64,000 nt of DNA, from contig NZ_PJNW01000002.1 of the NCBI RefSeq assembly GCF_002844595.1, forward strand, positions 992,001-1,056,000, written 5' to 3'. Of this stretch, positions 5,430-18,626 are shown piece by piece. The position numbers and the translations under genes were made by a program. Each line of letters begins with the position of its first letter. Positions within the stretch are counted from its first letter, which is position 1. The stretch is from Pleomorphomonas diazotrophica (GTDB lineage: Bacteria; Pseudomonadota; Alphaproteobacteria; Rhizobiales; Pleomorphomonadaceae). The notes under the pieces are model-generated. The model was not told where the DNA came from and did no database searches. It saw only the letters and a list, made by a program, of their open reading frames with translations.

Positions 5430-6349
5430 TGTGCAACGATTGCGGCTGCGGGTCGGGTGGAACCGGCTACAAGATCAACGGCAAGACGCCGGCCGAGCTG
5501 CATGGTCATGCCCACGATCACCCACATGACCACGACCATGGCCATGATCACGGTCATCACCACCATCACGACCATGATCATCCGCATGACCACGATCACT
5601 CTCACGATCATGGGCACCACCACGTGCATGCGGCACCGCTTGCCGCCGTCCATCAGCCCGGCATCGACAGCGAGCGGGTGATCCGCATCGAGCGCGATGT
5701 TCTCGCCAAGAACAACGATGCCGCGCGGCAGAACCGCGCCCGTCTCGCCGCCACCGGCACGCTGGCCCTCAACCTGATGTCGTCGCCCGGTTCAGGCAAG
5801 ACGACGCTGCTGGTGCGCGCCATCGAGGACCTGAAAGCCAAGTTCCCGATCGCCGTCATCGAAGGTGATCAGCAGACCGACAACGACGCCGAGCGGATCC
5901 GGGCGACCGGAGTCCGCGCCATTCAGATCAACACCGGCAGGGGCTGTCACCTCGAAGCCGGCATGGTCGGCACCGCGCTCGACGACATCAAGGCCGAGCC
6001 GGGTGGCCTCCTGTTCATCGAGAACGTCGGCAATCTGGTCTGCCCGGCCGGCTTCGACCTCGGGGAAGCGCACAAGGTGGTCGTGCTGTCGGTCACCGAG
6101 GGCGAGGACAAGCCGCTGAAATACCCCGACATGTTCGCCGTGGCCGACCTTTTGCTCCTTAACAAGGCCGACCTCTTGCCGCATCTGAAGTTCGATGTGG
6201 GCAGGTGCCTCGCCGCGGCGCTCACCGTCAATCCGCATCTCCAGACGCTGGTGGTCTCGGCCGAAACCGGTGAGGGCATGGCCGCCTTTTATGCCTGGAT
6301 CGAGGCGCGCGCCGCCCTTTCCCGTGCCGCCGCCGTCGTTCGGGCCTGA
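5429..6349 (+). CDS. hypB: Hydrogenase nickel-incorporation GTPase HypB with His-rich nickel-storage region
   Basis: 306 residues. The N-terminus MCNDCGCG is the high-affinity metal site. Residues about 25-67 (bases 5501-5629) are a His/Asp tract with more than 20 histidines, as in rhizobial HypB that stores nickel. The GTPase domain has a P-loop SPGSGKTT (residues 119-126), an EGDQQTDND segment and the base-specificity motif NKADL. HypB uses GTP to release nickel to HypA and HupL. The strong His tract may matter because no hupE nickel permease is present in the operon. Confidence 0.97.
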
Positions 6350-6356
6350 CGAGACG

Positions 6357-8621
6357 ATGACCGCCGCGCCCGCCCCCGATGCCTTCGCCGCCGTGGCGCG
6401 CCTTTTCCTCAAGGTGAACGGTGCGGTGCAGGGCGTGGGTATGCGTCCCTTCGTCCATCGGCTTGCTACCGAATGCGGTCTCGCCGGCTATGTCCGAAAC
6501 GGCGCCGATGGCGTGACCATCGAGGTGGAGGGCGCGCGCGTCGAGGAGTTCGTCCGCCGTCTTGAAACCGAGATACCGCCACTCGCCCGCATCGACACGC
6601 TTCTTCGTAAGGACATGCCGACCGCCGGTGACGCCGAGTTCGTCATCCGGGAGAGCCTCGACGGCGAGACGATGACGCGCATCGTCGCCGATGCCGCCAC
6701 CTGCGATGCCTGCCTCGGCGAGCTGTTCGACCCGGCCAGTCGCTACTTCGCCTATCCCTTCGTCAACTGCACCCATTGCGGACCGCGTTACACCATCACT
6801 CGGCGCCTGCCCTATGATCGGCGGCAAACGTCGATGGCCTCCTTCCCGATGTGCCCGGATTGCGGGGCGGCCTACACCGATGTGCGCGACCGGCGCTTCC
6901 ATGCCGAGCCGGTTGCTTGTCCGACCTGTGGGCCGAAGCTCAGCCATCCCGTTTCAGAGATTGTCGACGCGATCCGGGCCGGCCGCATCGTGGCGCTGAA
7001 GGGCATCGGCGGCTTCCATCTCGTATGTGATGCCCGCAACGCCGAGGCCGTTTCGGCGCTTCGGGCCAGGAAGGCGCGCGAGTTCAAGCCCTTTGCTCTG
7101 ATGGTGGCGAATGCCGCGTCCATCTCTGCGATCGCCGAAGCATCGCCTGAAGAGAAGAAGCTCTGTTCGTCGACCGCCCGGCCGATCGTGCTGATGCGGG
7201 CAAAACCCGGCGTAATGGCGCCTGCCGTCTCGCCCGGCCTCTCCCGCGTCGGTGTCATGCTGGCTTACGCGCCGGTGCATCACCTGCTGTTCGCCGCGCT
7301 GGCCGGTCACGACTTCGCCGGCCACGATCCGCACGCCGCCAACGACTTCGTACTGGTCGCCACATCGGCCAATCCGGGCGGCGAACCGCTGGTGGTGGAC
7401 GACGAGGATGCGACACGCCGCCTAGTCGGCATTGCCGATCTGATCGTCACCCATGACCGCGCCATCGTGGTGCGCGCCGACGACAGCGTGGCGCAGGTGA
7501 TCGCCGGCGCGCCGAGCTTCCTTCGCCGGGCGCGCGGCTACGTGCCCGAACCGATCGCTCTCTCCGAAGATGGCCCAGCAACCCTTGCCCTCGGGGCGCA
7601 CCTCAAATCGACGGTGACACTGACGCGCGGTCGCGAGGCCTTCGTCTCCCAGCACGTCGGCGATCTCGACACCGCCGAGACGCTGAAGTTCTATCGCGAG
7701 ACGATCGCCCATCTTATCGACATTGTCGGTGTCAAACCGGAGTTGGTCGCCTCGGACCTCCATCCCGACTATCGTTCCAGCCAGATGGCTGAAGAGTTCG
7801 GTCCGCCGGTCGTTCGGGTACAGCACCACGCGGCGCATGTCGCGGCTGTCGCGGCGGAAGCCGGACTTGATGGACCAGCGCTCGGCCTCGCGCTCGACGG
7901 CCATGGCCTCGGCGACGACGGCGGTGCCTGGGGTGGCGAACTGTTGCTGGTCGACGGCGCAAACCATCGTCGCCTTGGTCATCTCGCCTCCCTGCCGCTG
8001 CCCGGCGGTGACCGCGCCGCCCGAGAACCGTGGCGGATGGGGGCCGGTGCGCTGGCCGCGCTCGGTCGGTCCTATCTGGCCGCCACCTTCTTTCCCGATC
8101 GGCCGCTGGCCGGACCGATCGCCGACCGCGTCGCCACCGGTGCCGACCGGCTTGCCACCACCTCGCTTGGCCGACTGTTCGACGCGGCGGCGGCGCTTCT
8201 CGGTGTGCGTGCCGTGCAGGACTATGAAGGACAGGCAGCGATGGAGCTGGAGGCGCTGGTCGACAAGCCGATCGCCTTCCCCGGCGGGTTCGCGCTCGAA
8301 AACCGCGTCCTGTCCTTTGCGCCGCTTCTTGCCCATTTCGCTCTCGCCCGTCCTGATGCCCGCACCGGCGCGGCGCTGTTCCATGGCACGCTGATCGAAG
8401 GCTTCGCCGCCCTCGCCTGCCATGGCGCGACCGCAACCGGCCTCACGTCGGTCGCGCTCGGCGGCGGCTGCCTGATGAACCGCGTACTGGCCGAAGGCCT
8501 CTCAGCCGCGCTTGCCCAATCCAACCTCACTCCCCTCCTCGCCCGGCGCCTGCCGGCCAACGATGGCGGCCTTTCCTTCGGGCAGGCGGTCCTCGCCCGC
8601 CGAGCCTTCTCGGAGATCTGA
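6357..8621 (+). CDS. hypF: Carbamoyltransferase HypF
   Basis: 754 residues with the full domain order: acylphosphatase-like (VNGAVQGVGMRPFVHRLA, residues about 17-36), four zinc-finger CxxC pairs (CDAC, CTHC, CPDC, CPTC, residues about 115-190), a YrdC-like nucleotide-binding domain (about 200-390) and a Kae1/TobZ-like carbamoyltransferase domain (HHAAHVAA and the C-terminal GGCLMNR). HypF turns carbamoyl phosphate into the thiocarbamate on HypE that becomes cyanide. Start at 6357 gives the normal N-terminus, 7 bases after hypB. Confidence 0.97.
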   Translation: MTAAPAPDAFAAVARLFLKVNGAVQGVGMRPFVHRLATECGLAGYVRNGADGVTIEVEGARVEEFVRRLETEIPPLARIDTLLRKDMPTAGDAEFVIRESLDGETMTRIVADAATCDACLGELFDPASRYFAYPFVNCTHCGPRYTITRRLPYDRRQTSMASFPMCPDCGAAYTDVRDRRFHAEPVACPTCGPKLSHPVSEIVDAIRAGRIVALKGIGGFHLVCDARNAEAVSALRARKAREFKPFALMVANAASISAIAEASPEEKKLCSSTARPIVLMRAKPGVMAPAVSPGLSRVGVMLAYAPVHHLLFAALAGHDFAGHDPHAANDFVLVATSANPGGEPLVVDDEDATRRLVGIADLIVTHDRAIVVRADDSVAQVIAGAPSFLRRARGYVPEPIALSEDGPATLALGAHLKSTVTLTRGREAFVSQHVGDLDTAETLKFYRETIAHLIDIVGVKPELVASDLHPDYRSSQMAEEFGPPVVRVQHHAAHVAAVAAEAGLDGPALGLALDGHGLGDDGGAWGGELLLVDGANHRRLGHLASLPLPGGDRAAREPWRMGAGALAALGRSYLAATFFPDRPLAGPIADRVATGADRLATTSLGRLFDAAAALLGVRAVQDYEGQAAMELEALVDKPIAFPGGFALENRVLSFAPLLAHFALARPDARTGAALFHGTLIEGFAALACHGATATGLTSVALGGGCLMNRVLAEGLSAALAQSNLTPLLARRLPANDGGLSFGQAVLARRAFSEI

Positions 8622-8624
8622 CCC

Positions 8625-8867
8625 ATGTGCCTCGCCGTTCCCGCCCTCGTCAAAGAGATCCTGCCCGACAACATGGCCAAGATCAGTCTCGACGGCGTAT
8701 CGATGACCATTTCCACCGCGTTGGTGAAGAACGTCGGTGTCGGCGACTACGTCATCGTTCACGTCGGCTACGCGCTGGCCAAGGTCGACCCCGACGAGGC
8801 GCGACGGACGCTCGATCTGCTCGATGAAGCGCGCGGTGTGGCGCTCGCCGCCGGAGGTGCCCGATGA
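8625..8867 (+). CDS. hypC: Hydrogenase assembly chaperone HypC
   Basis: 80 residues starting MCLAVPALV. The N-terminal cysteine and the downstream GDYVIVHVGYAL motif define HypC. With HypD it carries the Fe(CN)2CO unit to the large subunit. Placed 3 bases after hypF and overlapping hypD by 4 bases. It is shorter than the paralogue hupF at 1874. Confidence 0.96.
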   Translation: MCLAVPALVKEILPDNMAKISLDGVSMTISTALVKNVGVGDYVIVHVGYALAKVDPDEARRTLDLLDEARGVALAAGGAR

Positions 8868-10018
8868 AGTATGTCGACGAATATCGCGACGGCGACAAGG
8901 CACGCGACATTGCGGCCGCCATCGCCGCCGAAGTGCAGCCCGACCGCTCCTATGCCTTCATGGAGTTCTGCGGCGGGCACACCCACGCGATCTCGCGCTA
9001 CGGCATTGAGGATCTGCTGCCCAAGAACGTGCGGATGATCCACGGCCCGGGCTGCCCGGTGTGCGTGCTGCCGATCGGCCGCATCGATGATGCCATTCGT
9101 CTGGCAAAGCGGCCGGAGGTGACGCTCTGCACCTACGCCGACCTGATGCGCGTGCCAGCATCTGGCGGCCTCAGCCTGATGAAGGCCAAGGCGGCCGGCG
9201 CCGACATCCGCATGGTCTATTCCTCGCTCGACGCCATCCGCATCGCCGAGGCCAATCCCGAGCGGCAGGTGGTGTTCTTTGCCATCGGCTTCGAGACGAC
9301 CACGCCGCCCACCGCCGTCGCCCTGAAGACGGCCGAGGCCAAGGGGCTCAAGAACTTCTCGATCTACTGCAATCACGTGCTGACGCCGGTCGCCATGCGG
9401 GCCATCCTCGAGATGCCGCCGACGCCCGACGAGCCGCCGATCGCCATCGAGGGCTTCGTCGGCCCGTCGCATGTCTCGGCCATCATCGGCATGGAGCCCT
9501 ATCGGGTGTTCGCCCGCGACTATCACAAGCCGGTGGTGATCTCCGGCTTCGAGCCGCTCGACGTGATGTACTCGATCCTGATGCTGGTGCGGCAGGTCAA
9601 CGAGCAGCGGTCGGAGGTGGAGAACCAGTATATCCGTGCCGTCAAGACGGAGGGCAATCGCGTCGCGATCGACCTCTGCGACGAGGTCTTCGAGCTGCGG
9701 GAGAGTTTCGAGTGGCGCGGCCTCGGCGCAGTGCCGAAGAGCGCGCTGAAGCTGCGCGACGCCTATGCCTTCTACGACGCCGAAAAGCGCTTCACTGTGG
9801 AGACGCAGCCGGCCGAGGACAACCCGGCCTGCGAGTGTGGCGCCATCCTGCGTGGCCAGAAGAAGCCGGCCGACTGCCGCCTGTTCGGCACGGTCTGCAC
9901 CCCGGAGACGCCGACCGGCGCCTGCATGGTGTCGTCGGAAGGCGCCTGCGCCGCCCACTGGACCTATGGCCGCTTCCGCCATCGCGAGACCAATTCCGCC
10001 CTCAGGAAAAGCGCATGA
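8864..10018 (+). CDS. hypD: Hydrogenase formation protein HypD
   Basis: 384 residues. HypD is the Fe-S protein on which the Fe(CN)2CO group is assembled. Signature motifs are FCGGHTHA (residues about 36-43), GPGCPVC (about 64-70) and GFETTTPP (about 144-151). The C-terminal cysteines for the [4Fe-4S] cluster are present (ACECGAILRG and later cysteines to about residue 365). Overlaps hypC and hypE by 4 bases each. Confidence 0.97.
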   Translation: MKYVDEYRDGDKARDIAAAIAAEVQPDRSYAFMEFCGGHTHAISRYGIEDLLPKNVRMIHGPGCPVCVLPIGRIDDAIRLAKRPEVTLCTYADLMRVPASGGLSLMKAKAAGADIRMVYSSLDAIRIAEANPERQVVFFAIGFETTTPPTAVALKTAEAKGLKNFSIYCNHVLTPVAMRAILEMPPTPDEPPIAIEGFVGPSHVSAIIGMEPYRVFARDYHKPVVISGFEPLDVMYSILMLVRQVNEQRSEVENQYIRAVKTEGNRVAIDLCDEVFELRESFEWRGLGAVPKSALKLRDAYAFYDAEKRFTVETQPAEDNPACECGAILRGQKKPADCRLFGTVCTPETPTGACMVSSEGACAAHWTYGRFRHRETNSALRKSA

Positions 10019-11061
10019 CCAAGACGTTCCGCCGCAAGCTCGATTTCAAGGCCGGTCGGGTCGACATGAGCCACGGCGCTGGCGGTCGCGCCATGGCCGA
10101 GCTGATCTCGTCAATCTTCAAGGATGCCTTCGGCAACGAACTGCTCGAACAGGGCAACGATCAGGCGAGTTTTCCGACGCCCTCAGGTGGCCGCATGGTG
10201 ATGACCACCGACGGTTACGTTGTGTCGCCGATCTTTTTCCCAGGCGGCGACATCGGTTCGCTCGCCGTGCATGGCACCGTCAACGACCTCGCCATGGCCG
10301 GAGCGAAACCGCTTTACCTTTCGGCGAGCTACATCATCGAGGAAGGCTTCCCGCTCGGCGACCTCAAGCGCATCGCCGACTCCATGGGCGCGGCGGCCAA
10401 GGCTGCGGGGGTGATGATCGTCACCGGCGACACCAAGGTGGTGGAGCGCGGCAAGGCTGACGGCGTCTTCATCTCCACGGCCGGCGTCGGCGTGGTGCCG
10501 GATGGCATCAACCTGTCCGGCGACCGGGCGCGGCCGGGCGACAAGGTGATCGTCTCGGGCTCGATGGGCGACCATGGCGTCGCCATCATGTCGAGCCGCG
10601 AAAACCTTACCTTCGAGACGGAAATCCTGTCCGATAGCGCGGCGCTCAATGGGCTGGTCGATGCGATGGTGGCGGCCGCCGGTCCGCATCTGCGTCTGAT
10701 GCGCGACCCGACCCGCGGCGGTCTCGCGGCAACGCTCAACGAGCTCGCGCATCAGTCGGGCGTCGGCTTCCGGATCGTCGAGGATCACATCCCGATCAAA
10801 CGGCAAGTCGCTGCGGCCTGCGAGCTCCTGGGGCTCGATCCGCTCAACGTCGCCAACGAGGGCAAGCTTGTCGCCGTCGTCGCGGCGGAGGCGGCGGAAG
10901 GGCTGTTGGCGGCCATGCGCTCTCACCCGCTCGGGGCAGAAGCGGCGATCATCGGCGAGGCGGTCGAGGACGATCAGCGCTTCGTGCAGATGACCACCGG
11001 CTTCGGCGGCGGCCGCATCGTCGACTGGCTGGCCGGCGAGCAACTGCCCCGCATCTGCTGA
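10015..11061 (+). CDS. hypE: Carbamoyl dehydratase HypE
   Basis: 348 residues ending PRIC. The terminal cysteine receives the carbamoyl group from HypF and HypE dehydrates it to thiocyanate using ATP. The N-terminal half is PurM/AIR synthase-like (SHGAGGRAM, later GTVNDLAMAGA), with the C-terminal ATP-binding domain after about residue 160. It is the last gene of the hup-hyp run; no hypX or regulatory hupR/hoxA gene follows. Confidence 0.97.
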   Translation: MTKTFRRKLDFKAGRVDMSHGAGGRAMAELISSIFKDAFGNELLEQGNDQASFPTPSGGRMVMTTDGYVVSPIFFPGGDIGSLAVHGTVNDLAMAGAKPLYLSASYIIEEGFPLGDLKRIADSMGAAAKAAGVMIVTGDTKVVERGKADGVFISTAGVGVVPDGINLSGDRARPGDKVIVSGSMGDHGVAIMSSRENLTFETEILSDSAALNGLVDAMVAAAGPHLRLMRDPTRGGLAATLNELAHQSGVGFRIVEDHIPIKRQVAAACELLGLDPLNVANEGKLVAVVAAEAAEGLLAAMRSHPLGAEAAIIGEAVEDDQRFVQMTTGFGGGRIVDWLAGEQLPRIC

Positions 11062-11419
11062 AGGCCTAGAGCCTTCGCCGACCAAGCCCGGATGAACAAC
11101 CTTCATGGCTTCGACATCTGGGTGCCAAGGGACGACGCCGCGACATCCGTGCAACAGCGGCGCGGCGTCGACCGACCTGAATTGATTGAATACCAACAAA
11201 CAATTTCGGCGATGCCGGGGACCCGGTATGCTTCGCTCAATCCTTTGAGTCTTCGATGACAGCCGCCTCGTCCGTCGCCGACATCGGTCGCGCCGGAAAT
11301 GCGGGTCCCGCACCGCCCGGAGCGGGTTCTCCGGCGTCGACCGACGCCCCAACGCGCGAGTCTCGTCGCACGTTGACACTCCCGGAACCGCCTGAAGCGG
11401 TCCGAAACCCGTTCGGGGA
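11062..11419 (+). other. Intergenic region between hypE and the hyf-like module
   Basis: A 358-base gap with no credible gene on either strand. A short hairpin (AAGGC, loop, GCCTT) sits right after the hypE stop at about 11062-11076 with no T run. A TTGACA box lies at 11373-11378 but has no good -10 partner, and no clear -24/-12 sigma54 site was found. The gap probably carries the promoter of the next operon, but the exact site cannot be read with confidence. Confidence 0.4.
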
Positions 11420-13450
11420 ATGAAAGTGACAATGCCGATCGCAGCGGCCCTTCTGAGTGTCGCCGGCCTTGCCGGCGTCGCCGTGGTGGCGCCGATCCTC
11501 ACCGCCCGACGCCTGACCTCGGCGACACCTGTCGTCTATGGAGCAAGCCTCGTCTTCACGTCCGTGCTGCTTGTCAGTGGCCTCCTCGGCCTTCTGGGCG
11601 GCAGCGCGTTTCAAGGCGTCCTCCACCTGCCGGTGGGGCTTCCCTGGACGGGCGCACATTTCGCCCTCGATCCGCTCAGCGCGGCTTTCCTCGTCATTGT
11701 CAACTTCGGTGCCGTGGTCGCTTCGATCTACGCCATCGGCTATGGCGCCCACGAGGAGGAACCCGGCCGCGTGCTGCCCTTCTATCCGGCGTTTCTCGCC
11801 GGCATGAACCTCGTGGTGCTCTCGGCCGACGCCTTTGGTTTCCTGGTGGCCTGGGAGTTCATGTCGCTCAGTTCCTGGGCGCTGGTCATGGCGCATCACC
11901 ACGAGGCAGAGAACCGCCGGGCCGGCTTTGTCTACCTCCTGATGGCTTCCTTCGGCACGCTGATGCTGCTGCTGGCCTTCGGTCTGCTGGCCGGTCCTGA
12001 CGGCGACTATGCCTTCTCGGCCATCCGCACCGCCGAACACGTGCCCTGGATCGCCGGCCTCGTGCTGGTGCTGATGCTGCTCGGTGCGGGCTCAAAGGCC
12101 GGCCTGGTGCCCTTGCATGTCTGGCTGCCGCTCGCCCATCCGGCCGCGCCGAGCCATGTGTCGGCCCTGATGTCGGGCGTGATGACCAAGGTGGCGATCT
12201 ACGGCTTCATCCGCGTCGTGTTCGATCTCGTCAGCGAGCCGGCGTGGTGGTGGGCAGTCATCGTGCTGATCCTCGGGGCTGGATCGGCGGTGCTCGGCGT
12301 GCTCCACGCCGTCTTGCAGCGCGATCTCAAGCGGCTCCTCGCCTATTCGACGGTCGAGAATGTCGGCATCGTGTTCATCGGCCTCGGGCTTGGTCTCGCC
12401 TTCAAGACCAACGACATGGCCGGCGCGGCGGCTCTCGCCGTCACCGCGTCGATCTTCCACGCCTTCAACCATTCGCTGTTCAAGAGCCTTTTGTTCTTCG
12501 GCGCCGGCAACGTGCTGACCGGGGCCGGCGAACGCGACATCGAGAAGCTGGGCGGCCTTGTTCATCGCATGCCGGAGACGGCTTATCTGTTCCTCGGCGG
12601 GTGCCTCGCCATCTCCGCGTTGCCGCCGCTCAACGGCTTCGTCTCGGAATGGCTGATCTTGCAGGCGATCCTCCTCAGCCCCGACCTGCCGCAATGGGCG
12701 CTGCGTTTCCTGGTGCCGGCGTCCGGCGCCATGCTGGCGCTCGCTGCGGCGCTTGCCGCCGCTTGCTTCGTGAGGGCCTTCGGCATCACCTTCCTGAGCC
12801 GGCCACGCTCGCCCACCGCCGAGACGGCGCAGGAGGTGGGCCGCTGGCAAATCCGGGCGATGTACGTCCTTTTCGGCGTCTGTCTCGTCGCCGGCATTTT
12901 TCCCGGTCCGTTTCTTGACGCCCTGTCGCCGGTGTCGCAGCTCCTGGTGGGCGGCGCCATGCCCAAGCAGCCGATCGTGCCGCATTTCTCCATCATTCCG
13001 ATTTCGGAAAGCCGCAGCTCCTATTCGGGCTTCCTGGTGTTCTTCTTCATCCTGATGGCAAGCTGGGCGGCGATCCGCGTCATTCACAACTTCGCCTCGC
13101 GGGCCGTGCGCCGAGCGCCGCCGTGGGACTGCGGATTTCCGGATGCCTCGCCGGCTACGCAATACACGGCAGACAGCTTCGCCCAGCCGATCCGCCGTGT
13201 GTTCGGCCCCCTCGCCTTCCGGGCCAAGATCAGCCAGACCCTGCCGCCACCCGGTGACATGGCGCCGGCGCGCCTGAACCTCACGCTTCGCGATCTCGTC
13301 TGGGAGTTTGTCTACGCGCCGATTGAAGGCGCCGTGCTCTACGCCGCCGAACGGCTCAACATCCTGCAGTTCCTGACCATACGCAGCTATCTCAGCCTCG
13401 TCTTCGCAGCGCTGGTCCTCCTTCTCGTGCTGGTGGCAACATGGGCCTGA
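11420..13450 (+). CDS. hyfB: Hydrogenase-4 component B-like proton-pumping membrane subunit
   Basis: 676 residues, almost all hydrophobic helices, of the HyfB/HycC/NuoL antiporter-like family. Typical features are the residues around VPLHVWLPLAHPAAPSHVSALMSG (bases about 12110-12180) with the conserved lysine and histidine of the proton channel, and LLAYSTVENVGIVFIGLG. It would form part of the membrane arm that couples electron transfer to ion movement. The C-terminal soluble segment (about residues 555-640) is as in HyfB. The 3' end overlaps hyfC by 10 bases. Confidence 0.9.
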   Translation: MKVTMPIAAALLSVAGLAGVAVVAPILTARRLTSATPVVYGASLVFTSVLLVSGLLGLLGGSAFQGVLHLPVGLPWTGAHFALDPLSAAFLVIVNFGAVVASIYAIGYGAHEEEPGRVLPFYPAFLAGMNLVVLSADAFGFLVAWEFMSLSSWALVMAHHHEAENRRAGFVYLLMASFGTLMLLLAFGLLAGPDGDYAFSAIRTAEHVPWIAGLVLVLMLLGAGSKAGLVPLHVWLPLAHPAAPSHVSALMSGVMTKVAIYGFIRVVFDLVSEPAWWWAVIVLILGAGSAVLGVLHAVLQRDLKRLLAYSTVENVGIVFIGLGLGLAFKTNDMAGAAALAVTASIFHAFNHSLFKSLLFFGAGNVLTGAGERDIEKLGGLVHRMPETAYLFLGGCLAISALPPLNGFVSEWLILQAILLSPDLPQWALRFLVPASGAMLALAAALAAACFVRAFGITFLSRPRSPTAETAQEVGRWQIRAMYVLFGVCLVAGIFPGPFLDALSPVSQLLVGGAMPKQPIVPHFSIIPISESRSSYSGFLVFFFILMASWAAIRVIHNFASRAVRRAPPWDCGFPDASPATQYTADSFAQPIRRVFGPLAFRAKISQTLPPPGDMAPARLNLTLRDLVWEFVYAPIEGAVLYAAERLNILQFLTIRSYLSLVFAALVLLLVLVATWA

Positions 13451-14394
13451 TCCTCGACATTCTCGTTCAGGGCGTCCAGATGGTGCTGGTGCTGGCGCTG
13501 GCGCCGGGGCTCGTCGGCTTCACGCGCAAGGTAAAGGCGCGTCTCCTCCGCCGGCAGGGACCGCCGGTCCTGCAGCCCTATCGCGACCTCCTGCGCCTCG
13601 TTCGCAAGGAGGCGGTACTGGCCGACAACGCCTCCTGGCTGTTCCGCAATGCGCCCTACCTGATCTTCGCAACCACCTGGGTGGCGGCGGCGCTGGTGCC
13701 GACATTCGCCGCCGGCCTGCACTTCTCCTGGGCGGCCGATCTCATCGCCATCACTGCGCTACTCGGCTCGGCGCGCTTCTTCCTGGCGCTCGCCGGCATG
13801 GACATCGGCACGGCGTTCGGCGGCATCGGATCGAGCCGCGAGATGCTGTTCGCGACGCTGGCCGAGCCGGCGATGATCATGATCGTCTTCACCGTGGCGC
13901 TGGTCGCCGGCTCGACCCAGCTCTCGACGGTGGCGGCCTTCATGGTCGACCACAGCACGCTACGCGTTTCGCTCGGTCTCGCGCTGATCGGCCTGATCAT
14001 CGTGGCGCTGACGGAGAATGCGCGCGTGCCTGTCGACAACCCGGCAACGCACCTGGAGCTCACCATGGTGCATGAGGCCATGGTGCTGGAATATTCCGGC
14101 CGCCACCTTGCGGTAATCGAACTCGCGGCGGCGCTGAAGCTCCTGCTCTACATCTCGCTGATCGCCTGCATTTTCGCGCCCTGGGGCATGGCACGCCCAG
14201 ACGATGGCGTTGCTGGCATGGCGATCGGCGTGGTCACCTGGGTGGGAAAGCTCGCCATTGGCGGCTTCCTGATGGTCGTGTTCGAGACGGCGATCGCCAA
14301 GATGCGGGTGTTCCGCGTGCCAGAATTCGTTGGCGGCGCGTTGATGCTCGGCCTCCTCGGCACGCTGTTGCTGTTCGTTTCGCGGAGCTTCTGA
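13441..14394 (+). CDS. hyfC: Hydrogenase-4 component C-like membrane subunit (NuoH/ND1 family)
   Basis: 317 residues, about eight transmembrane helices. Members connect the soluble redox arm to the membrane arm. Visible family features are RRQGPPVLQPYRDLLRL near residue 37 and the segment NPATHLELTMVHEAMVLEYSG near residue 200, matching the acidic loop of NuoH/HycD. Translationally coupled to the genes on both sides (10-base overlap upstream, 1-base overlap with hyfE). Confidence 0.92.
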   Translation: MGLILDILVQGVQMVLVLALAPGLVGFTRKVKARLLRRQGPPVLQPYRDLLRLVRKEAVLADNASWLFRNAPYLIFATTWVAAALVPTFAAGLHFSWAADLIAITALLGSARFFLALAGMDIGTAFGGIGSSREMLFATLAEPAMIMIVFTVALVAGSTQLSTVAAFMVDHSTLRVSLGLALIGLIIVALTENARVPVDNPATHLELTMVHEAMVLEYSGRHLAVIELAAALKLLLYISLIACIFAPWGMARPDDGVAGMAIGVVTWVGKLAIGGFLMVVFETAIAKMRVFRVPEFVGGALMLGLLGTLLLFVSRSF

Positions 14395-15056
14395 TGGAAC
14401 GCTTTTCCCTCGACGCTGCGCATCTTCTGGCCGGCGGAATGGTGCTGGTGAGCTTCATGATGCTCTACCAGAACCGCATCCTCGGCTTGCTCAACGTGTT
14501 TGCCGCCCATGCGGTGGTGCTGGCGCTGTCGGTCGCCTGGCAGGCCTATGTTCAGTCGGCGCCGCATCTCTTCGTCACCGCAGCCATTGCGTTGATCCTC
14601 AAGGCGATCATCATCCCCGTGGCACTGCACCACATGGTTCTGCGGCTTGGGGTCCACCGCGACATCGAGACGGTGGGCGGCATCGGTCCGACCATGCTGA
14701 TGGGAATCGGCCTCGTTGCCCTCTCCATGGTCGTCATGCTGCCCGCGGCGGCCGAAGCCGACCCGATCGCCCGCGAGGATCTGGCGCTCGCCCTCTCGGT
14801 CATTCTGCTGGGCCTCCTGATGATGGTGACGCGCCAGAACGCGATCAGTCAGATCGTCGGCTTCATGAGCCTTGAGAATGGGCTCGTGCTGGCCGCGACG
14901 GGCGCTCGCGGCATGCCGCTGGTGGTGGAGATTTCCGTCGCCTTTTCGGTGCTGGTCGCCTTCATCGTCATCGGCGTGTTCCTGTTCCGCATCCGCGAAC
15001 GCTTCGACACCATCGACACCCAGGCCCTCGACGACTTCCGGGAGGGCCGGGAATGA
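14394..15056 (+). CDS. hyfE: Hydrogenase-4 component E-like membrane subunit
   Basis: 220 residues with six or so hydrophobic helices; HyfE has a NuoK-like core. The segment MMVTRQNAISQIVGFMSLENGLVLAA near the middle, containing an S-L-E-N-G motif, is the family hallmark and includes the conserved membrane glutamate. The ATG overlaps the hyfC stop and the end overlaps hyfF by 4 bases. HyfE is found in Hyf and Ehr/Mbh-related complexes but not in the E. coli Hyc complex. Confidence 0.9.
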   Translation: MERFSLDAAHLLAGGMVLVSFMMLYQNRILGLLNVFAAHAVVLALSVAWQAYVQSAPHLFVTAAIALILKAIIIPVALHHMVLRLGVHRDIETVGGIGPTMLMGIGLVALSMVVMLPAAAEADPIAREDLALALSVILLGLLMMVTRQNAISQIVGFMSLENGLVLAATGARGMPLVVEISVAFSVLVAFIVIGVFLFRIRERFDTIDTQALDDFREGRE

Positions 15057-16522
15057 CCGCCTTTCTGCATCAGCTTCCTTTCGCTCCCATCGACGCCGTG
15101 CTGGTGGTGCCCGGCCTCGCCGCGCTGCTGCTGGCGCTGATCCCGCAGTACAGGCTCGGCGCCCGCCTCAACATGCTGGCGTCCGGCCTCACCTTCCTGT
15201 TTGCGCTGACGCTGCTCCTCGAGCGCCCCGATCCGGCGGTGAGCTTCCTGTTCGTCGACGACCTCAACGTGGTCTTCGTCGTGCTCGGCACCTTCGTCGG
15301 CTTCACCACGTCGATCTTTTCGGCGAGCTATATCGGCCACGAGATCGAGATCGGCCGGCTGAAGCCCGGCTATATCCGTTTCTATCACGGCATGTATCAG
15401 GCGCTCAGCTTCTCGATGAACCTCGGGCTGACCGCCAACAACGTCGGCCTGATGTGGGTGGCGGTCGAGCTTGCCACGCTGACAACCGTCTTGATGGTCG
15501 GCCTCTACCGCACGCAGGCGGCGCTGGAAGCGGCCTGGAAATACTTCATCCTGGGGTCGGTGGGCATCGCGCTGGCGCTGTTCGGCACCATCCTGATCTA
15601 CATGGCGGCACGACCGGTGATCGGCGAGGGTCACGACGCCATGGTCTGGACGACGCTGATCGCCAACGCCAACGCCTTCAGCCCCGAGCTGCTCAACGTC
15701 GCCTTCGTATTCCTGATGCTCGGCTACGGCACCAAGGTCGGTCTCGCGCCGCTGCACGCCTGGCTGCCGGATGCGCATGCCGAGGGGCCGACGCCGATTT
15801 CGGCGGTGCTTTCCGGCCTGCTGCTCAACGTGGCGCTCTACGCCCTTCTGCGCTTCAAGATGCTGCTCGCCGCCAATCCCCTGGCGGTGGCGCCGGGACC
15901 GCTGCTGGTGACGCTCGGCCTGGTGTCTCTGATCTTTGCGGCCTTCATGCTCTACCTCCGGCGCGACATAAAGCGGCTGTTCGCCTACTCGTCGATCGAA
16001 CACATGGGGCTGATCGCCTTCGCCTTCGGCATGGGCGGACCGCTCGCCAACTTCGCCGGCCTCCTGCACATGACCATGCACTCGCTGACCAAGTCGGCGA
16101 TCTTCTTCGCTGTCGGCCAGGTGGCGCAGGTCAAGGGCACGCAGAAGCTCGCCGACATCCGCGGCCTCACCGAAAGCCATCCGACGCTGGGCTGGAGCCT
16201 CGTTGTCGGTGTCGCCGCCATCGCCGGCCTGCCGCCCATGGGCATCTTCACCAGCGAGTTCCTGCTGGTCAGCTCGACATTCGCGCGGGAGCCACTGCTG
16301 GCCATACCGCTGGTCGCCGGTTTGCTGCTCGCCTTCGGCGCGCTCGTCTGGCGCCTGACCGGCATCGCCTTCGGCCCGCCGTCGCCCAGCGTGGTCGACG
16401 CCGGCCGGCGACCGTCGATGCTGCCGCTCATCATCCATCTCGTTCTGGTGCTGATCGCCGGTCTCTACCTGCCGGGTCCGCTGGTCGCCTGGTTCCAGAA
16501 CGTCGCGCGCATGCTGGGATGA
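15053..16522 (+). CDS. hyfF: Hydrogenase-4 component F-like proton-pumping membrane subunit
   Basis: 489 residues, the second antiporter-like (NuoM/N-type) subunit. Signature segments are GYGTKVGLAPLHAWLPDAHAEGPTPISAVLSG (about residues 222-253), with the lysine and histidines of the proton path, and RLFAYSSIEHMGLIAFAFG. Present in Hyf-type and related complexes. Four bases separate it from hyfG. With hyfB it gives the module two candidate ion-pumping subunits. Confidence 0.92.
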   Translation: MTAFLHQLPFAPIDAVLVVPGLAALLLALIPQYRLGARLNMLASGLTFLFALTLLLERPDPAVSFLFVDDLNVVFVVLGTFVGFTTSIFSASYIGHEIEIGRLKPGYIRFYHGMYQALSFSMNLGLTANNVGLMWVAVELATLTTVLMVGLYRTQAALEAAWKYFILGSVGIALALFGTILIYMAARPVIGEGHDAMVWTTLIANANAFSPELLNVAFVFLMLGYGTKVGLAPLHAWLPDAHAEGPTPISAVLSGLLLNVALYALLRFKMLLAANPLAVAPGPLLVTLGLVSLIFAAFMLYLRRDIKRLFAYSSIEHMGLIAFAFGMGGPLANFAGLLHMTMHSLTKSAIFFAVGQVAQVKGTQKLADIRGLTESHPTLGWSLVVGVAAIAGLPPMGIFTSEFLLVSSTFAREPLLAIPLVAGLLLAFGALVWRLTGIAFGPPSPSVVDAGRRPSMLPLIIHLVLVLIAGLYLPGPLVAWFQNVARMLG

Positions 16523-16526
16523 GACC

Positions 16527-18089
16527 ATGAGCACGTTCCGCACCGCCCTTCTCAACGCTGCGCTGACCGTCGAGGAGCAGAAGCCCTGGCCGCGCATTAC
16601 CGTCGATGGCGATACATGGCGACAGGCTACGCTGGCGATCGCCGCCGGCAACGCGACGCTAGCAGGCCTTTGGGCCGAACCCGACGCCGTGCACATGGCG
16701 CTGCTCGACGATCAGGACGGCTCGTTGATGGTGCTGACGCTGGCGACAACCGATGGCCGCTTTCCGTCGGTCGGGCTCACCCATCCGCCGGCCCAGCGCC
16801 TCGAACGATCCATCACCGACCTTTATGGCCTTGTTCCCGAAGGTATGCCCGACGACCGGCGCTGGCTCGATCACGATCGCTGGGGCGTCCGTGCGCCGCT
16901 CGGTTCCGGCGCCCCGGTGCCGACTGACGGCGCTCCCTACGCCTTCCTGAAGGCCGAGGGGCCGCCACTGCACCAGATCGCGGTGGGGCCGGTGCATGCC
17001 GGCATCATCGAGCCCGGCCACTTCCGCTTCTCGGCCAATGGCGAGATCGTCGTTCGGCTGGAAGAACGGCTCGGCTACGTTCACAAGGGGATCGAAGGGC
17101 TGCTGACGAATACGACGCTGGAGGCGGCCGCCAAGGTGGTGGCGCGTGTCTCGGGCGACAGCACGGTGGCCTACTCCCTGGCCTTCGCACGGGCGGCAGA
17201 GGCGGCTCTGGGGGTCGGCGTGCCGCAGCGGGCGATCTGGTTGCGTGCGCTTATGGCTGAACTCGAAAGGCTGGCCAACCATCTCGGCGATATCGGCGCC
17301 ATCTGCAACGATGCCGCCTTCGCGCTGATGCTCGCCCATTGCGGCATGCTCCGCGAGGAAGTGCTGCGCACGGCCAAGGCAAGCTTCGGGCACCGGCTGA
17401 TGATGGACCGCATCATGCCGGGCGGCGTTACGGTCGACCTTCACGATGCCGCACCGATCAAGGCCCTGACGACGCGTGTTCGTCAACGCTTCCCGCGCCT
17501 CGTCGAGCTCTACGACAATACCACCTCCTTGCAGAACCGGACCGTCGCGACGGGCTGCCTCTCAGCCGATCTCGCTCGCAGGTTCGGCGCCGGCGGCCCC
17601 ATCGGCCGGGCGTCCGGCCGGGCGTTCGACGCGCGCAAGGCGCCGGGCTACCCGCCCTATGGCGATCTCGATTTCAAGATGGCCAAGCGAGACAACGGTG
17701 ACGTTGACGCCCGCATCTGGGTGCGCATCGACGAAGTCTTCGAGAGTCTCGAGTTGATCGAGCAGATCGTCGACCGGCTGCCGCCCGGCCCGATAGCCTA
17801 CCCGCTGGCGCCGGCGCTGCGTGAACGGCGGGTGCCGCAGGCCGGCGGCCTTGCGAACGAACCCCACGACAACACCACCGAGGGCCTTGCCATGGTCGAG
17901 AGCTTCCGGGGTGATGTGCTGGTCTGGCTCCGGACCGACGACAGCGGCCGGGTGCTGCGAGGAGCGGTGCGCGATCCCTCCGTCTTCCAGTGGCCGCTCC
18001 TGGAGGCGGCGATCGAAGGCAACATCGTCGCCGACTTTCCGCTCTGCAATAAGTCCTTCAACTGCTCCTATTCCGGACACGATCTCTGA
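16527..18089 (+). CDS. hyfG: HyfG-like large subunit lacking the NiFe-binding cysteines
   Basis: 520 residues: an N-terminal NuoC-like part (about 1-130) fused to a NuoD/HycE-like part, as in HyfG. The alignment-diagnostic regions are recognisable but altered. Where group 4 hydrogenases have R-x-C-G-x-C-x-x-x-H-S, this protein has RVSGDSTVAYS (from residue 207), with no cysteine. Where they have DPCxxC at the C-terminus, it ends FPLCNKSFNCSYSGHDL (cysteines 507 and 513, spacing wrong for DPCxxC). It therefore cannot bind Ni-Fe in the usual way, like NuoD or Ehr subunits. The remaining protein is intact, so this is a functional change and not decay. Confidence 0.9.
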   Translation: MSTFRTALLNAALTVEEQKPWPRITVDGDTWRQATLAIAAGNATLAGLWAEPDAVHMALLDDQDGSLMVLTLATTDGRFPSVGLTHPPAQRLERSITDLYGLVPEGMPDDRRWLDHDRWGVRAPLGSGAPVPTDGAPYAFLKAEGPPLHQIAVGPVHAGIIEPGHFRFSANGEIVVRLEERLGYVHKGIEGLLTNTTLEAAAKVVARVSGDSTVAYSLAFARAAEAALGVGVPQRAIWLRALMAELERLANHLGDIGAICNDAAFALMLAHCGMLREEVLRTAKASFGHRLMMDRIMPGGVTVDLHDAAPIKALTTRVRQRFPRLVELYDNTTSLQNRTVATGCLSADLARRFGAGGPIGRASGRAFDARKAPGYPPYGDLDFKMAKRDNGDVDARIWVRIDEVFESLELIEQIVDRLPPGPIAYPLAPALRERRVPQAGGLANEPHDNTTEGLAMVESFRGDVLVWLRTDDSGRVLRGAVRDPSVFQWPLLEAAIEGNIVADFPLCNKSFNCSYSGHDL

Positions 18090-18104
18090 GGCGGACGACC
18101 GATC

Positions 18105-18626
18105 ATGCGTAGAATGCTGTTCGAGGGACTGTTTCGTCGACCGGTAACCGAGGGGGCGCCGGCGGTCGCCGACGCGGAGATCGACGCGCTGGCCGAGCGG
18201 CTCGGCGTCGCGGCGAAAGCCCGTCTCGGCCGCAGCCTGTCGATCCGTGAGGTGGATGCCGGCTCGTGCAACGGCTGCGAGCTGGAGGTTCACGCCCTCA
18301 ATAATAGCTATTACGACGTCGAGCGCTTCGGCCTGCGCTTTGTCGCCTCGCCACGCCACGCCGACGTGCTGATGGTCACCGGACCGGTGACGGCCAACAT
18401 GCGCGAGGGGCTGGAACGGACCTACGCGGCAACGCCCGCGCCTAAATGGGTGGTGGCGATCGGCGATTGCGCGGCCGGTTGCGGCGTGTTCGGCAAGAGC
18501 TACGCGGTGGTGGGCGCGGTATCGGACGTCATCCCGGTGGACCTCGTCATTCCTGGCTGCCCGCCGGAACCGATCGACATGCTGAAGGGCCTGATCGGCC
18601 TCGTCGAGGCGAGCGCGCGGGGCTAA
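18105..18626 (+). CDS. hyfI: HyfI-like [4Fe-4S] small subunit (NuoB family)
   Basis: 173 residues. The four cysteines of the N2-type cluster are conserved: C55 and C58 (SCNGCE), C122 (GDCA) and C152 (GCPPEP). It would pass electrons to or from the large subunit. The surrounding HyfA/HyfH-type ferredoxin subunits are not present, so the electron donor to this cluster is not encoded in the module. Last gene of the run, followed by a repeat-rich gap. Confidence 0.93.
   Translation: MRRMLFEGLFRRPVTEGAPAVADAEIDALAERLGVAAKARLGRSLSIREVDAGSCNGCELEVHALNNSYYDVERFGLRFVASPRHADVLMVTGPVTANMREGLERTYAATPAPKWVVAIGDCAAGCGVFGKSYAVVGAVSDVIPVDLVIPGCPPEPIDMLKGLIGLVEASARG

What the first reader, a model, noticed from the sequence alone, without database searches (positions are those of the whole stretch)
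16527..18089. Hyf-type large subunit without any nickel-binding cysteine pair
The gene set looks like hydrogenase-4, and the locus is next to a full hydrogenase operon, but the large subunit has RVSGDSTVAYS in place of R-x-C-G-x-C and FPLCNKSFNC in place of DPCxxC. The rest of the protein is intact. It should be an Ehr-like or NuoD-like redox subunit, which would reduce quinone or another acceptor instead of protons. An automatic annotation as formate hydrogenlyase or hydrogenase would be wrong.
Basis: partly seen in the sequence, partly recalled or inferred. Interest (0 to 1): 0.75.

Follow-up and report, generated by a model that had tools for sequence, protein, structure and literature searches.

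The report
Hydrogenase-like pump subunit without nickel site
The gene encodes the large subunit of a six-part, complex-I-like membrane complex that looks like a hydrogenase but lacks the amino acids that hold nickel; a close relative has been reported to handle hydrogen gas, so how, or whether, it does that is a sharp and testable open question.

Summary
ORF 16527-18089 has S, S, S and G where HycE/HyfG carry the four nickel-binding cysteines. None of 140 distinct orthologues has the ligand set or any CxxC in this domain. It is not decay: all 140 end where mature HycE is expected to end, and D211, K509, S510, N512, D519 and R461 are invariant. The partner small subunit keeps its four [4Fe-4S] ligands in 101 of 102.

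The cluster is not new. It is the hyqBCEFGI operon of Azorhizobium caulinodans; the missing CxxC motifs were printed in 2012 (PMC3357923), and the wider Ehr group is known. Yet those authors report hyq-dependent H2 uptake and evolution in vivo.

New here: 31 of 72 tested hyq genomes lack hypD, so the standard NiFe cofactor should not be made there. In A. caulinodans, NiFe and FeFe profiles find only hup-locus genes and HyqG. Hyq is not tied to nitrogen fixation.

"NuoD-like" quinone reduction is not supported by pocket residues; "not protons" conflicts with published genetics. Most likely a NiFe-free redox-driven ion pump; a Ni-free hydrogenase is not excluded.

The parts
11420..13450 (+). hyqB / HyfB-like antiporter-type membrane subunit (676 aa)
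   Evidence: NCBIfam NF005086 'hydrogenase 4 subunit B' 852 bits, above cut-off 667
13441..14394 (+). hyqC / HyfC-NuoH-like membrane subunit (317 aa)
   Evidence: Pfam NADHdh 134 bits, above cut-off
14394..15056 (+). hyqE / HyfE-like membrane subunit (220 aa)
   Evidence: NF008556 81 bits, below its cut-off of 136; syntenic in most relatives
15053..16522 (+). hyqF / HyfF-like antiporter-type membrane subunit (489 aa)
   Evidence: NF005043 'hydrogenase 4 subunit F' 836 bits, above cut-off 533
16527..18089 (+). hyqG: the large subunit in question (NuoC-like N-terminal part plus hydrogenase/NuoD-like part)
17145..17162 (+). RVSGDS (residues 207-212) in place of R-x-C-G-x-C
   Evidence: ligand columns S209 and S212; D211 invariant in 140 of 140
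18048..18086 (+). NKSFNCSYSGHDL-COOH (residues 508-520) in place of the DPCxxC end
   Evidence: ligand columns S514 and G517; 140 of 140 orthologues end at this column, which is the Arg of PCYSCTDR in HycE, 32 residues before HycE's own end
18105..18626 (+). hyqI / HyfI-NuoB-like small subunit (173 aa), [4Fe-4S] ligands C55, C58, C122, C152
   Evidence: NF005012 NuoB 129 bits, above cut-off 116; the four Cys in 101 of 102 orthologues
6195..11061 (+). hypF, hypD and hypE directly upstream (NiFe maturation genes of the neighbouring hup region; context, not part of the complex)
   Evidence: hypF and hypD by NCBIfam; hypE (10015-11061) by inspection only

Best explanation
The gene is hyqG, the large subunit of a six-subunit Hyq (Ehr-like) complex: a complex-I-superfamily, redox-driven ion pump that does not bind a NiFe centre. 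Shown: the nickel ligands are absent in the sampled family, the [4Fe-4S] ligands of the small subunit are kept, and many hosts lack a gene needed for the NiFe cofactor. Inferred: electrons pass between the single N2-type cluster, which can meet a soluble low-potential carrier directly because the cluster encodes no NuoI-type subunit, and a substrate bound in the pocket rebuilt from RxSGDS and NKSFNxSYSGxDL. That substrate is most likely a membrane quinone held in a way unlike complex I. The reaction is reversible and coupled to ion translocation. Not-NiFe is near certain (about 0.95); the donor and acceptor are a guess (about 0.4).
For: S/S/S/G in the four ligand columns of 98 of 98 rows; at most one Cys there, and no CxxC, in 140 of 140. 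Invariant new polar residues D211, K509, N512 (140 of 140), absent at those places from HycE, HyfG and NuoD, point to a working site rather than decay. HyqI cluster Cys 101 of 102. In HyqF the residues aligned with NuoM Glu, Lys and Glu (E139, K228, E402) are kept in 100, 99 and 99 of 100; one search printed only positions kept at 95% or more, and that these are pump residues is recalled. The six genes stand in this order in 68 of 84 loci. Ferredoxin motifs near the cluster in 6 of 104 loci, none recurring. hypD absent from 31 of 72 tested hyq genomes, 28 of the 66 best ones, including single-contig G456, G256, G326, G178. HyqG in the seven hyp-less genomes looked at has no ligand Cys. One group, 100/100.
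Against: Three papers of one laboratory report hyq-dependent H2 uptake and H2 evolution in A. caulinodans, which an enzyme without H2 chemistry does not explain. In the window's genus hypD lies 7.6-8.2 kb from hyqG on the same contig in 11 of 11 genomes where both places were listed. Outside that genus hyq genomes of the order carry hypD more often (20 of 39) than hyq-less ones (62 of about 288-310). So some link with H2 metabolism is plausible. No donor or acceptor is identified. The complex-I quinone residues are missing, which also weighs against my guess of a quinone.
Confidence: 0.55

Rival explanations
1. Hyq is a true hydrogenase that needs no nickel: H2 is split and formed at the rebuilt Ser/Asp/Lys/Asn pocket, with another metal or an unknown cofactor, and the electrons go through the [4Fe-4S] cluster.
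For: In vivo H2 phenotypes: nodules evolve 0.30 (wild type), 0.32 (delta-hup), 0.36 (delta-hyq) and 27 (double) umol H2 per g per h. At <1 uM O2 H2 evolution is 61,000 in delta-hup against 14,000 pmol in delta-hup delta-hyq, and 56,600 in nifK delta-hup (hyq intact), so nitrogenase is not the main source. The authors state, without numbers in the parts I read, that strains deleted for the complete 20-gene hup/hyp operon still recycle H2, and that Rhodocista centenaria without hup/hyp does so ('data not presented'). In A. caulinodans all other PF00374 hits lie in the hup locus and PF02906 finds nothing, so HyqG is the only candidate left by those two profiles.
Against: No cell-free assay ('not at hand'); one laboratory; the authors call the H2 site undetermined. 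No known chemistry for H2 activation at such a site. About 20% of the low-O2 H2 evolution stays without hyq and hup, so another H2 source is at work. No nifK delta-hup delta-hyq strain is reported in the parts read.
Confidence: 0.12
2. Quinone reductase working as in complex I, with the large subunit acting as NuoD.
For: Fold and distant homology to NuoD; Sprecher et al. argue that the quinone cavity elements are conserved.
Against: Columns of Nqo4 His38 and Tyr87 hold I in 139 of 140 and G in 138 of 140 (mapping of residue numbers recalled). Tree places it on the HycE side. No NuoI-type gene in the cluster.
Confidence: 0.15
3. Redox-inactive ion transporter that kept the large and small subunits as a scaffold (as in antiporter-derived bicarbonate uptake systems, recalled).
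For: No electron-input gene recurs beside the cluster.
Against: Four cluster Cys of HyqI kept in 101 of 102 orthologues and an invariant pocket argue for redox work.
Confidence: 0.08
4. A [NiFe]-hydrogenase whose ligands lie elsewhere, e.g. the three cysteines C260, C507, C513.
For: Sprecher et al. 2012 noted three Cys conserved in their set; in orthologues of 50% identity or more the matching ones are 115, 113 and 113 of 116.
Against: In 24 divergent orthologues they are 16, 2 and 15 of 24; 31 of 72 hosts lack hypD.
Confidence: 0.02

Closest known systems
HyqRBCEFGI 'endo-hydrogenase' of Azorhizobium caulinodans ORS571 (PMC2650096, PMC2930871, PMC3357923)
   Same: Same six structural genes in the same order; HyqG 58% identical over 518 aligned positions, RVSGDS and NKSFNCSYAGHDL; same group in the tree; absence of CxxC already stated there
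   Different: Window lacks a hyqR gene in front of hyqB and sits directly behind hypFDE; no NifA box or sigma-54 match in the window gap
Ehr complexes (Ech- or energy-converting-hydrogenase-related; Geobacter, Nitrospira, Margulisbacteria: PMC7894505, PMC10284858, PMC6349859)
   Same: Group-4-like gene set; in Nitrospira and Margulisbacteria stated to lack the NiFe ligands; function called unknown or only suspected
   Different: The Geobacter cluster spans seven genes, GSU0739-45, with an EhrA-1 antiporter-type subunit. No direct sequence comparison with any Ehr protein was made here
E. coli formate hydrogenlyase / hydrogenase-4 (HycE, HyfG)
   Same: Best solved-structure hit by sequence (202 bits) and by fold (7z0s_E, best E-value, TMq 0.78); keeps GPxH, EPGHFR and the RG arginine
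   Different: Four ligand Cys replaced, no 32-aa C-terminal tail, no hyfA, hyfD or hyfH counterpart between the six genes
Complex I NuoD/NuoCD
   Same: Same superfamily and fold; free of the four Cys
   Different: Quinone His and Tyr columns differ; other side of the tree

Membership tests
[NiFe]-hydrogenase, group 4 | Four Cys ligands (RxCGxC and DPCxxC) | tested here: not met
   S/S/S/G in 98 of 98 rows; at most one Cys in the four columns in 140 of 140
[NiFe]-hydrogenase, group 4 | Hyp maturation genes in the host genome | tested here: not met
   hypD in 41 of 72 hyq genomes, absent in 31; not met for the family, but the window's own genome does have hypD. Other hyp genes were not searched across genomes
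[NiFe]-hydrogenase, group 4 | Proximal [4Fe-4S] cluster ligands in the small subunit | tested here: met
   101 of 102
[NiFe]-hydrogenase, group 4 | Ni content and H2 turnover of the purified enzyme | not testable with these tools
   The 2012 paper says a cell-free uptake assay is not at hand
Hyq (A. caulinodans endo-hydrogenase operon) | Gene order hyqBCEFGI with Cys-free HyqG, one group in a tree | tested here: met
Hyq (A. caulinodans endo-hydrogenase operon) | hyqR regulator gene upstream | tested here: not met
   No ORF longer than 55 aa on the + strand lies in the gap 11062-11419 and the HyqR motif occurs nowhere in the window. In relatives the motif was found in 37 of 104 loci, none of L035-L043; a lower bound, since L116 and L117 have an annotated HTH gene that the motif missed
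Hyq (A. caulinodans endo-hydrogenase operon) | NifA / sigma-54 control | tested here: inconclusive
   Exact patterns only: no TGT-N10-ACA in the window gap, in 3 of 64 loci (near chance), and none in the stretch upstream of A. caulinodans hyqR, where NifA dependence was shown by experiment
Ehr complexes | Group-4-like gene set whose large subunit lacks the CxxC motifs | tested here: met
   definition as given in PMC10284858
Ehr complexes | Same clade as Geobacter EhrL | not tested
Complex I NuoD | Quinone-binding His and Tyr (Nqo4 His38, Tyr87) | tested here: not met
   I in 139 of 140, G in 138 of 140; the mapping of the numbers is recalled; one methods passage of PMC7434922 treats these two residues with the quinone

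The most novel reading that the evidence does not exclude
HyqG is a hydrogenase without nickel. The published H2 uptake and evolution would be real and direct, catalysed at a pocket in which Ser, Asp, Lys and Asn replace the four cysteines, in organisms some of which lack hypD and so the usual way to a NiFe cofactor.
Probability: 0.12. Interest if true: 0.95.

Novelty: new member of a known kind. Interest (0 to 1): 0.6.

Why it matters
Hyq-type complexes are widespread (62 of 398 sampled Pseudomonadota genomes; 53 of 397 in the order, 14 of them the window's own genus). The papers I saw call the role of the related Ehr complexes unknown or only suspect one, and my one search on 'hyq' found three papers, all on A. 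caulinodans. Those three credit the complex with H2 cycling although it has no nickel site. Genomes with hyq but without hypD turn the question into a clean test: either the H2 phenotypes need another explanation, or a new class of hydrogenase exists. Until then a name such as 'nickel-dependent hydrogenase large subunit' misleads genome surveys of H2 metabolism.

Tried and rejected
Decay or pseudogene: rejected, since 140 of 140 orthologues keep the same end and the same invariant residues.

Electron-input gene in the neighbourhood: none recurs. The recurrent extra neighbour of note is the hyqR-like XRE gene (32 loci). Other neighbour families outside the six genes occur in at most 13 loci.

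Nitrogen fixation as the sole role: co-occurrence is real but loose. Without Pleomorphomonas, 16 of 39 hyq genomes against 38 of 344 others have nifD (Fisher p 9.5e-6, genomes not independent). G597 and G292, below the family cut-off, were taken out of the nifD count; G007, whose nifD is split over two contigs, was kept. 23 of 39 hyq genomes have no nifD, against the 2010 statement that non-diazotrophs generally lack hyq.

NifA box as a family-wide signal: no support, exact patterns only.

Structure model: pTM 0.84, mean pLDDT 78.8, but the segments 138-186, 498-506 and 517-520, which hold much of the pocket, are below 50, so no claim on geometry is made. The pdb_via library was not available.

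Geobacter EhrL and archaeal relatives: no sequences fetched, so the Ehr link rests on gene content and papers. That the Marinobacter cassette of PMC8233155 is a relative is my inference from its description.

Promoter or terminator in the gap before hyqB: none found.

The greedy ORF calling gave shadow ORFs and a false 'ferredoxin in 42 loci' cluster; it was replaced.

Full report
WHAT IS THERE. The ORF 16527-18089 (+) is real and 520 aa long. It is the fifth of six tightly packed genes (11420-18626). These match HyfB (852 bits), NuoH/HyfC, HyfE, HyfF (836 bits), a NuoC+NuoD-like large subunit, and a NuoB-like small subunit. No NCBIfam model fits the large subunit above its cut-off; the best, NuoD, scores 210 against a cut-off of 360. 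The six genes follow hypF, hypD and hypE of a hup/hyp region (hypE by inspection). The end of a full-length NiFe large subunit lies at the window start (G000 contig 11, 990912-992498). The genome belongs to Pleomorphomonas, judged from 84-90% identical named relatives. In one search the orthologue is in the own genome and in all 13 of the same genus. The same genome has a second group-4-type large subunit with all four cysteines, with a NuoI-like subunit nearby, on contig 9.

THE FOUR COLUMNS. Against HycE the ligand columns hold S209, S212, S514 and G517. HMMER's pairing with the solved HycE chain and a MAFFT alignment agree. The two cysteines in FPLCNKSFNC fall beside the ligand columns. In 98 of 98 rows of closer orthologues the columns are S, S, S, G (some rows are near-duplicates of one species). 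I then widened the set with loci and the A. caulinodans gene, giving 140 distinct sequences: 116 at 50% identity or more and 24 below (sequences alike over the last 360 residues counted once). Not every hit of those calls became a locus, so this is a sample. No sequence has more than one Cys in the four columns; three divergent ones have a single one. None of 140 has a CxxC in this domain. D211, K509, S510, N512, D519 and R461 are invariant in 140 of 140. D211, K509 and N512 are not found at those places in HycE, HyfG or NuoD, so a new, strictly conserved set of residues has replaced the ligand set. All 140 proteins stop at the column of Arg in PCYSCTDR of HycE, whose remaining 32 residues are its tail; that this tail is removed by the protease HycI is recalled.

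REST OF THE COMPLEX. The small subunit keeps the four cluster cysteines in 101 of 102 orthologues. In HyqF, residues aligned with NuoM Glu, Lys and Glu (E139, K228, E402) are kept in 100, 99 and 99 of 100; one search printed only positions kept at 95% or more, so it shows what is conserved, not what is not. Electron transfer through one [4Fe-4S] cluster and ion pumping are plausible; neither is shown. No NuoI-type ferredoxin gene goes with the cluster: six of 104 loci have any ferredoxin motif nearby, and none recurs. The six genes stand in the window's order in 68 of 84 loci; the others are cut by contig ends, miss a subunit in my crude ORF search, or differ in order, some perhaps only because ORFs were taken from stop to stop.

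KNOWN RELATIVES. The set is the hyqRBCEFGI operon of A. caulinodans. I read PMC2650096 (parts 1-4 of 5), PMC3357923 (parts 1-4 of 5) and PMC2930871 (parts 1-2 of 3). To be sure of identity I looked for a published hyq primer in 341 genomes of one family. It hit one, G761. All four genomic primer parts lie there, and its HyqG reads RVSGDS and NKSFNCSYAGHDL. The 2009 paper says that HyqG carries the Ni,Fe centre. The broader Ehr name for CxxC-free group-4-like complexes is also in print (passages of PMC10284858, PMC6349859, PMC10432482; Geobacter in passages of PMC7894505). A Marinobacter paper meets a seven-gene cassette, six of whose genes are Nuo-like, beside copper genes and suggests copper redox as its energy source (passages); that it is a relative is my inference. 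The Marreiros et al. [quoted passage not shown]

THE PARADOX. Those papers report that H2 from nitrogenase is recycled in nodules if either hup or hyq is intact (0.32 and 0.36, against 27 umol per g per h in the double mutant). At <1 uM O2, H2 evolution is 61,000 pmol in delta-hup and 14,000 in delta-hup delta-hyq; a nifK delta-hup strain with hyq intact gives 56,600. They state that strains without the whole hup/hyp operon still recycle H2, and that R. centenaria without hup/hyp does too ('data not presented'). There is no cell-free assay. About 20% of the low-O2 evolution remains without hyq and hup and is not explained. The growth defect of the hyq mutant on N2 (8.8 against 7.2 h) persists under 20% H2 (5.0 against 4.2 h), which the authors read as a further role. 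I checked what else in that genome could do it. PF00374 finds five places: four within about 12 kb in the hup locus (named HupL, HupUV-type and HupK-type by place and score only) and HyqG. There is no PF02906 [FeFe] match, and hypD occurs once, about 3 kb further on in the same region. So the published data, taken at face value, leave HyqG alone as the H2 enzyme.

INDEPENDENCE FROM NICKEL MATURATION. Searches gave 105 hyq genomes; I tested 71 of them plus G761. Of these 72, 41 have hypD and 31 do not; of the 66 best assemblies 38 have it and 28 do not. Single-contig genomes without hypD are G456, G256, G326 and G178. In seven hyp-less genomes I looked at, HyqG has no ligand Cys, with the same motif or a near variant (G363: RVAGDS and NKSFNLNYAGHDL). 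A complex that needed NiFe(CN)2CO could not be matured there in the usual way. On the other side, hyq genomes of the order outside Pleomorphomonas carry hypD in 20 of 39, against 62 of some 288 to 310 hyq-less genomes (p 7e-5 to 2e-4, genomes not independent, denominator only bounded). In Pleomorphomonas hypD lies 7.6-8.2 kb from hyqG on the same contig in 11 of 11 genomes where both places were listed, and eight loci show hypF-hypD-hypE directly before hyqB. A link with H2 metabolism therefore remains possible.

NITROGEN FIXATION. In 397 genomes of the order, 53 have hyqG and 68 have nifD by my count; 30 have both (the two samples are taken to be the same, as their handles agree). Outside Pleomorphomonas 16 of 39 hyq genomes have nifD against 38 of 344 others. 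So hyq is enriched with nif but not bound to it. The NifA box does not travel with it by exact pattern.

PLACE IN THE FAMILY. In a tree of 44 sequences the 34 Cys-free Hyq proteins form one side of a branch (100/100) and lie with HycE, HyfG and the contig-9 enzyme rather than with NuoD (100/99). The joining branches are long, the program warns of false joins and of an unsettled bootstrap, and few reference hydrogenases were at hand. The AlphaFold model (pTM 0.84, pLDDT 78.8) matches HycE best in the PDB by E-value (7z0s_E, TMq 0.78), then complex I chains. Much of the pocket is of low confidence.

MECHANISM. Best reading: a reversible, ion-pumping oxidoreductase with one [4Fe-4S] cluster and a rebuilt, nickel-free pocket. 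Shown: the ligand loss, the cluster ligands, the conservation of the pocket, and independence from hypD. Inferred: pumping, a soluble low-potential partner docking directly on the small subunit, and a quinone-like substrate. Against a plain complex-I site: the His38 and Tyr87 columns hold I and G.

REGULATION, A SIDE FINDING. In 38 loci with the hyqR motif (37 plus A. caulinodans) a 17-base palindrome TGATGTTTTAAACATCA with at least 13 matches occurs in 22, in 19 of these 92-96 bases before the hyqR start. Shuffles give a mean of 0.17 and a maximum of 1 such locus. The consensus was taken from the same loci, so the count is inflated; the fixed position is the stronger sign. It is a candidate HyqR operator. 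The gap before hyqB in the window has at best 11 of 17 matches, and the window has no hyqR.

Noticed in passing
L183 (A. caulinodans, 93 bases before hyqR) and 21 other loci such as L071, L102, L104; not in the window: A 17-base palindrome, consensus TGATGTTTTAAACATCA, sits 92-96 bases before hyqR in 19 of the 22 loci (of 38) that have it with at least 13 matches, in alpha- and gammaproteobacteria: a candidate operator of the HyqR regulator.
   Followed up: partly
L184 10752-18245 (own genome, contig 9): A second group-4-type locus with all four NiFe cysteines, a NuoI-like ORF and a long antiporter-type ORF; a natural positive control beside the Cys-free Hyq.
   Followed up: partly
L019 1039-2622 (genome G030, same order): A 528-aa NuoCD-like protein with Cys at ligand columns 1 and 3 only (C, D, C, E); unlike the hydrogenases and the ordinary NuoD proteins aligned here.
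   Followed up: no
L053 2-3402: Upstream of a hyq operon lies another group-4-like set with a 267-aa protein that joins a ferredoxin-type (HycF/NuoI-like) part to a NuoB-like part.
   Followed up: no
L089 4152-5651: A hyq locus binned as Phycisphaerales pairs with a Competibacteraceae sequence in the tree; probably a misbinned contig.
   Followed up: no
L183, region upstream of hyqR: The 2009 paper describes a canonical NifA box there, but no TGT-N(9-11)-ACA occurs in the stretch examined, although NifA dependence was shown by reporter assay.
   Followed up: partly
Plasmid records H3, H16, H20, H35: Features over the orthologue are named 'nickel-dependent hydrogenase large subunit', 'NADH-quinone oxidoreductase subunit C' or even 'hydrogenase expression protein HypE' in public records.
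   Followed up: no
window 14849-16696, minus strand: A 615-aa ORF runs antisense to hyqF; it looks like a shadow ORF of a GC-rich genome, not a gene.
   Followed up: no
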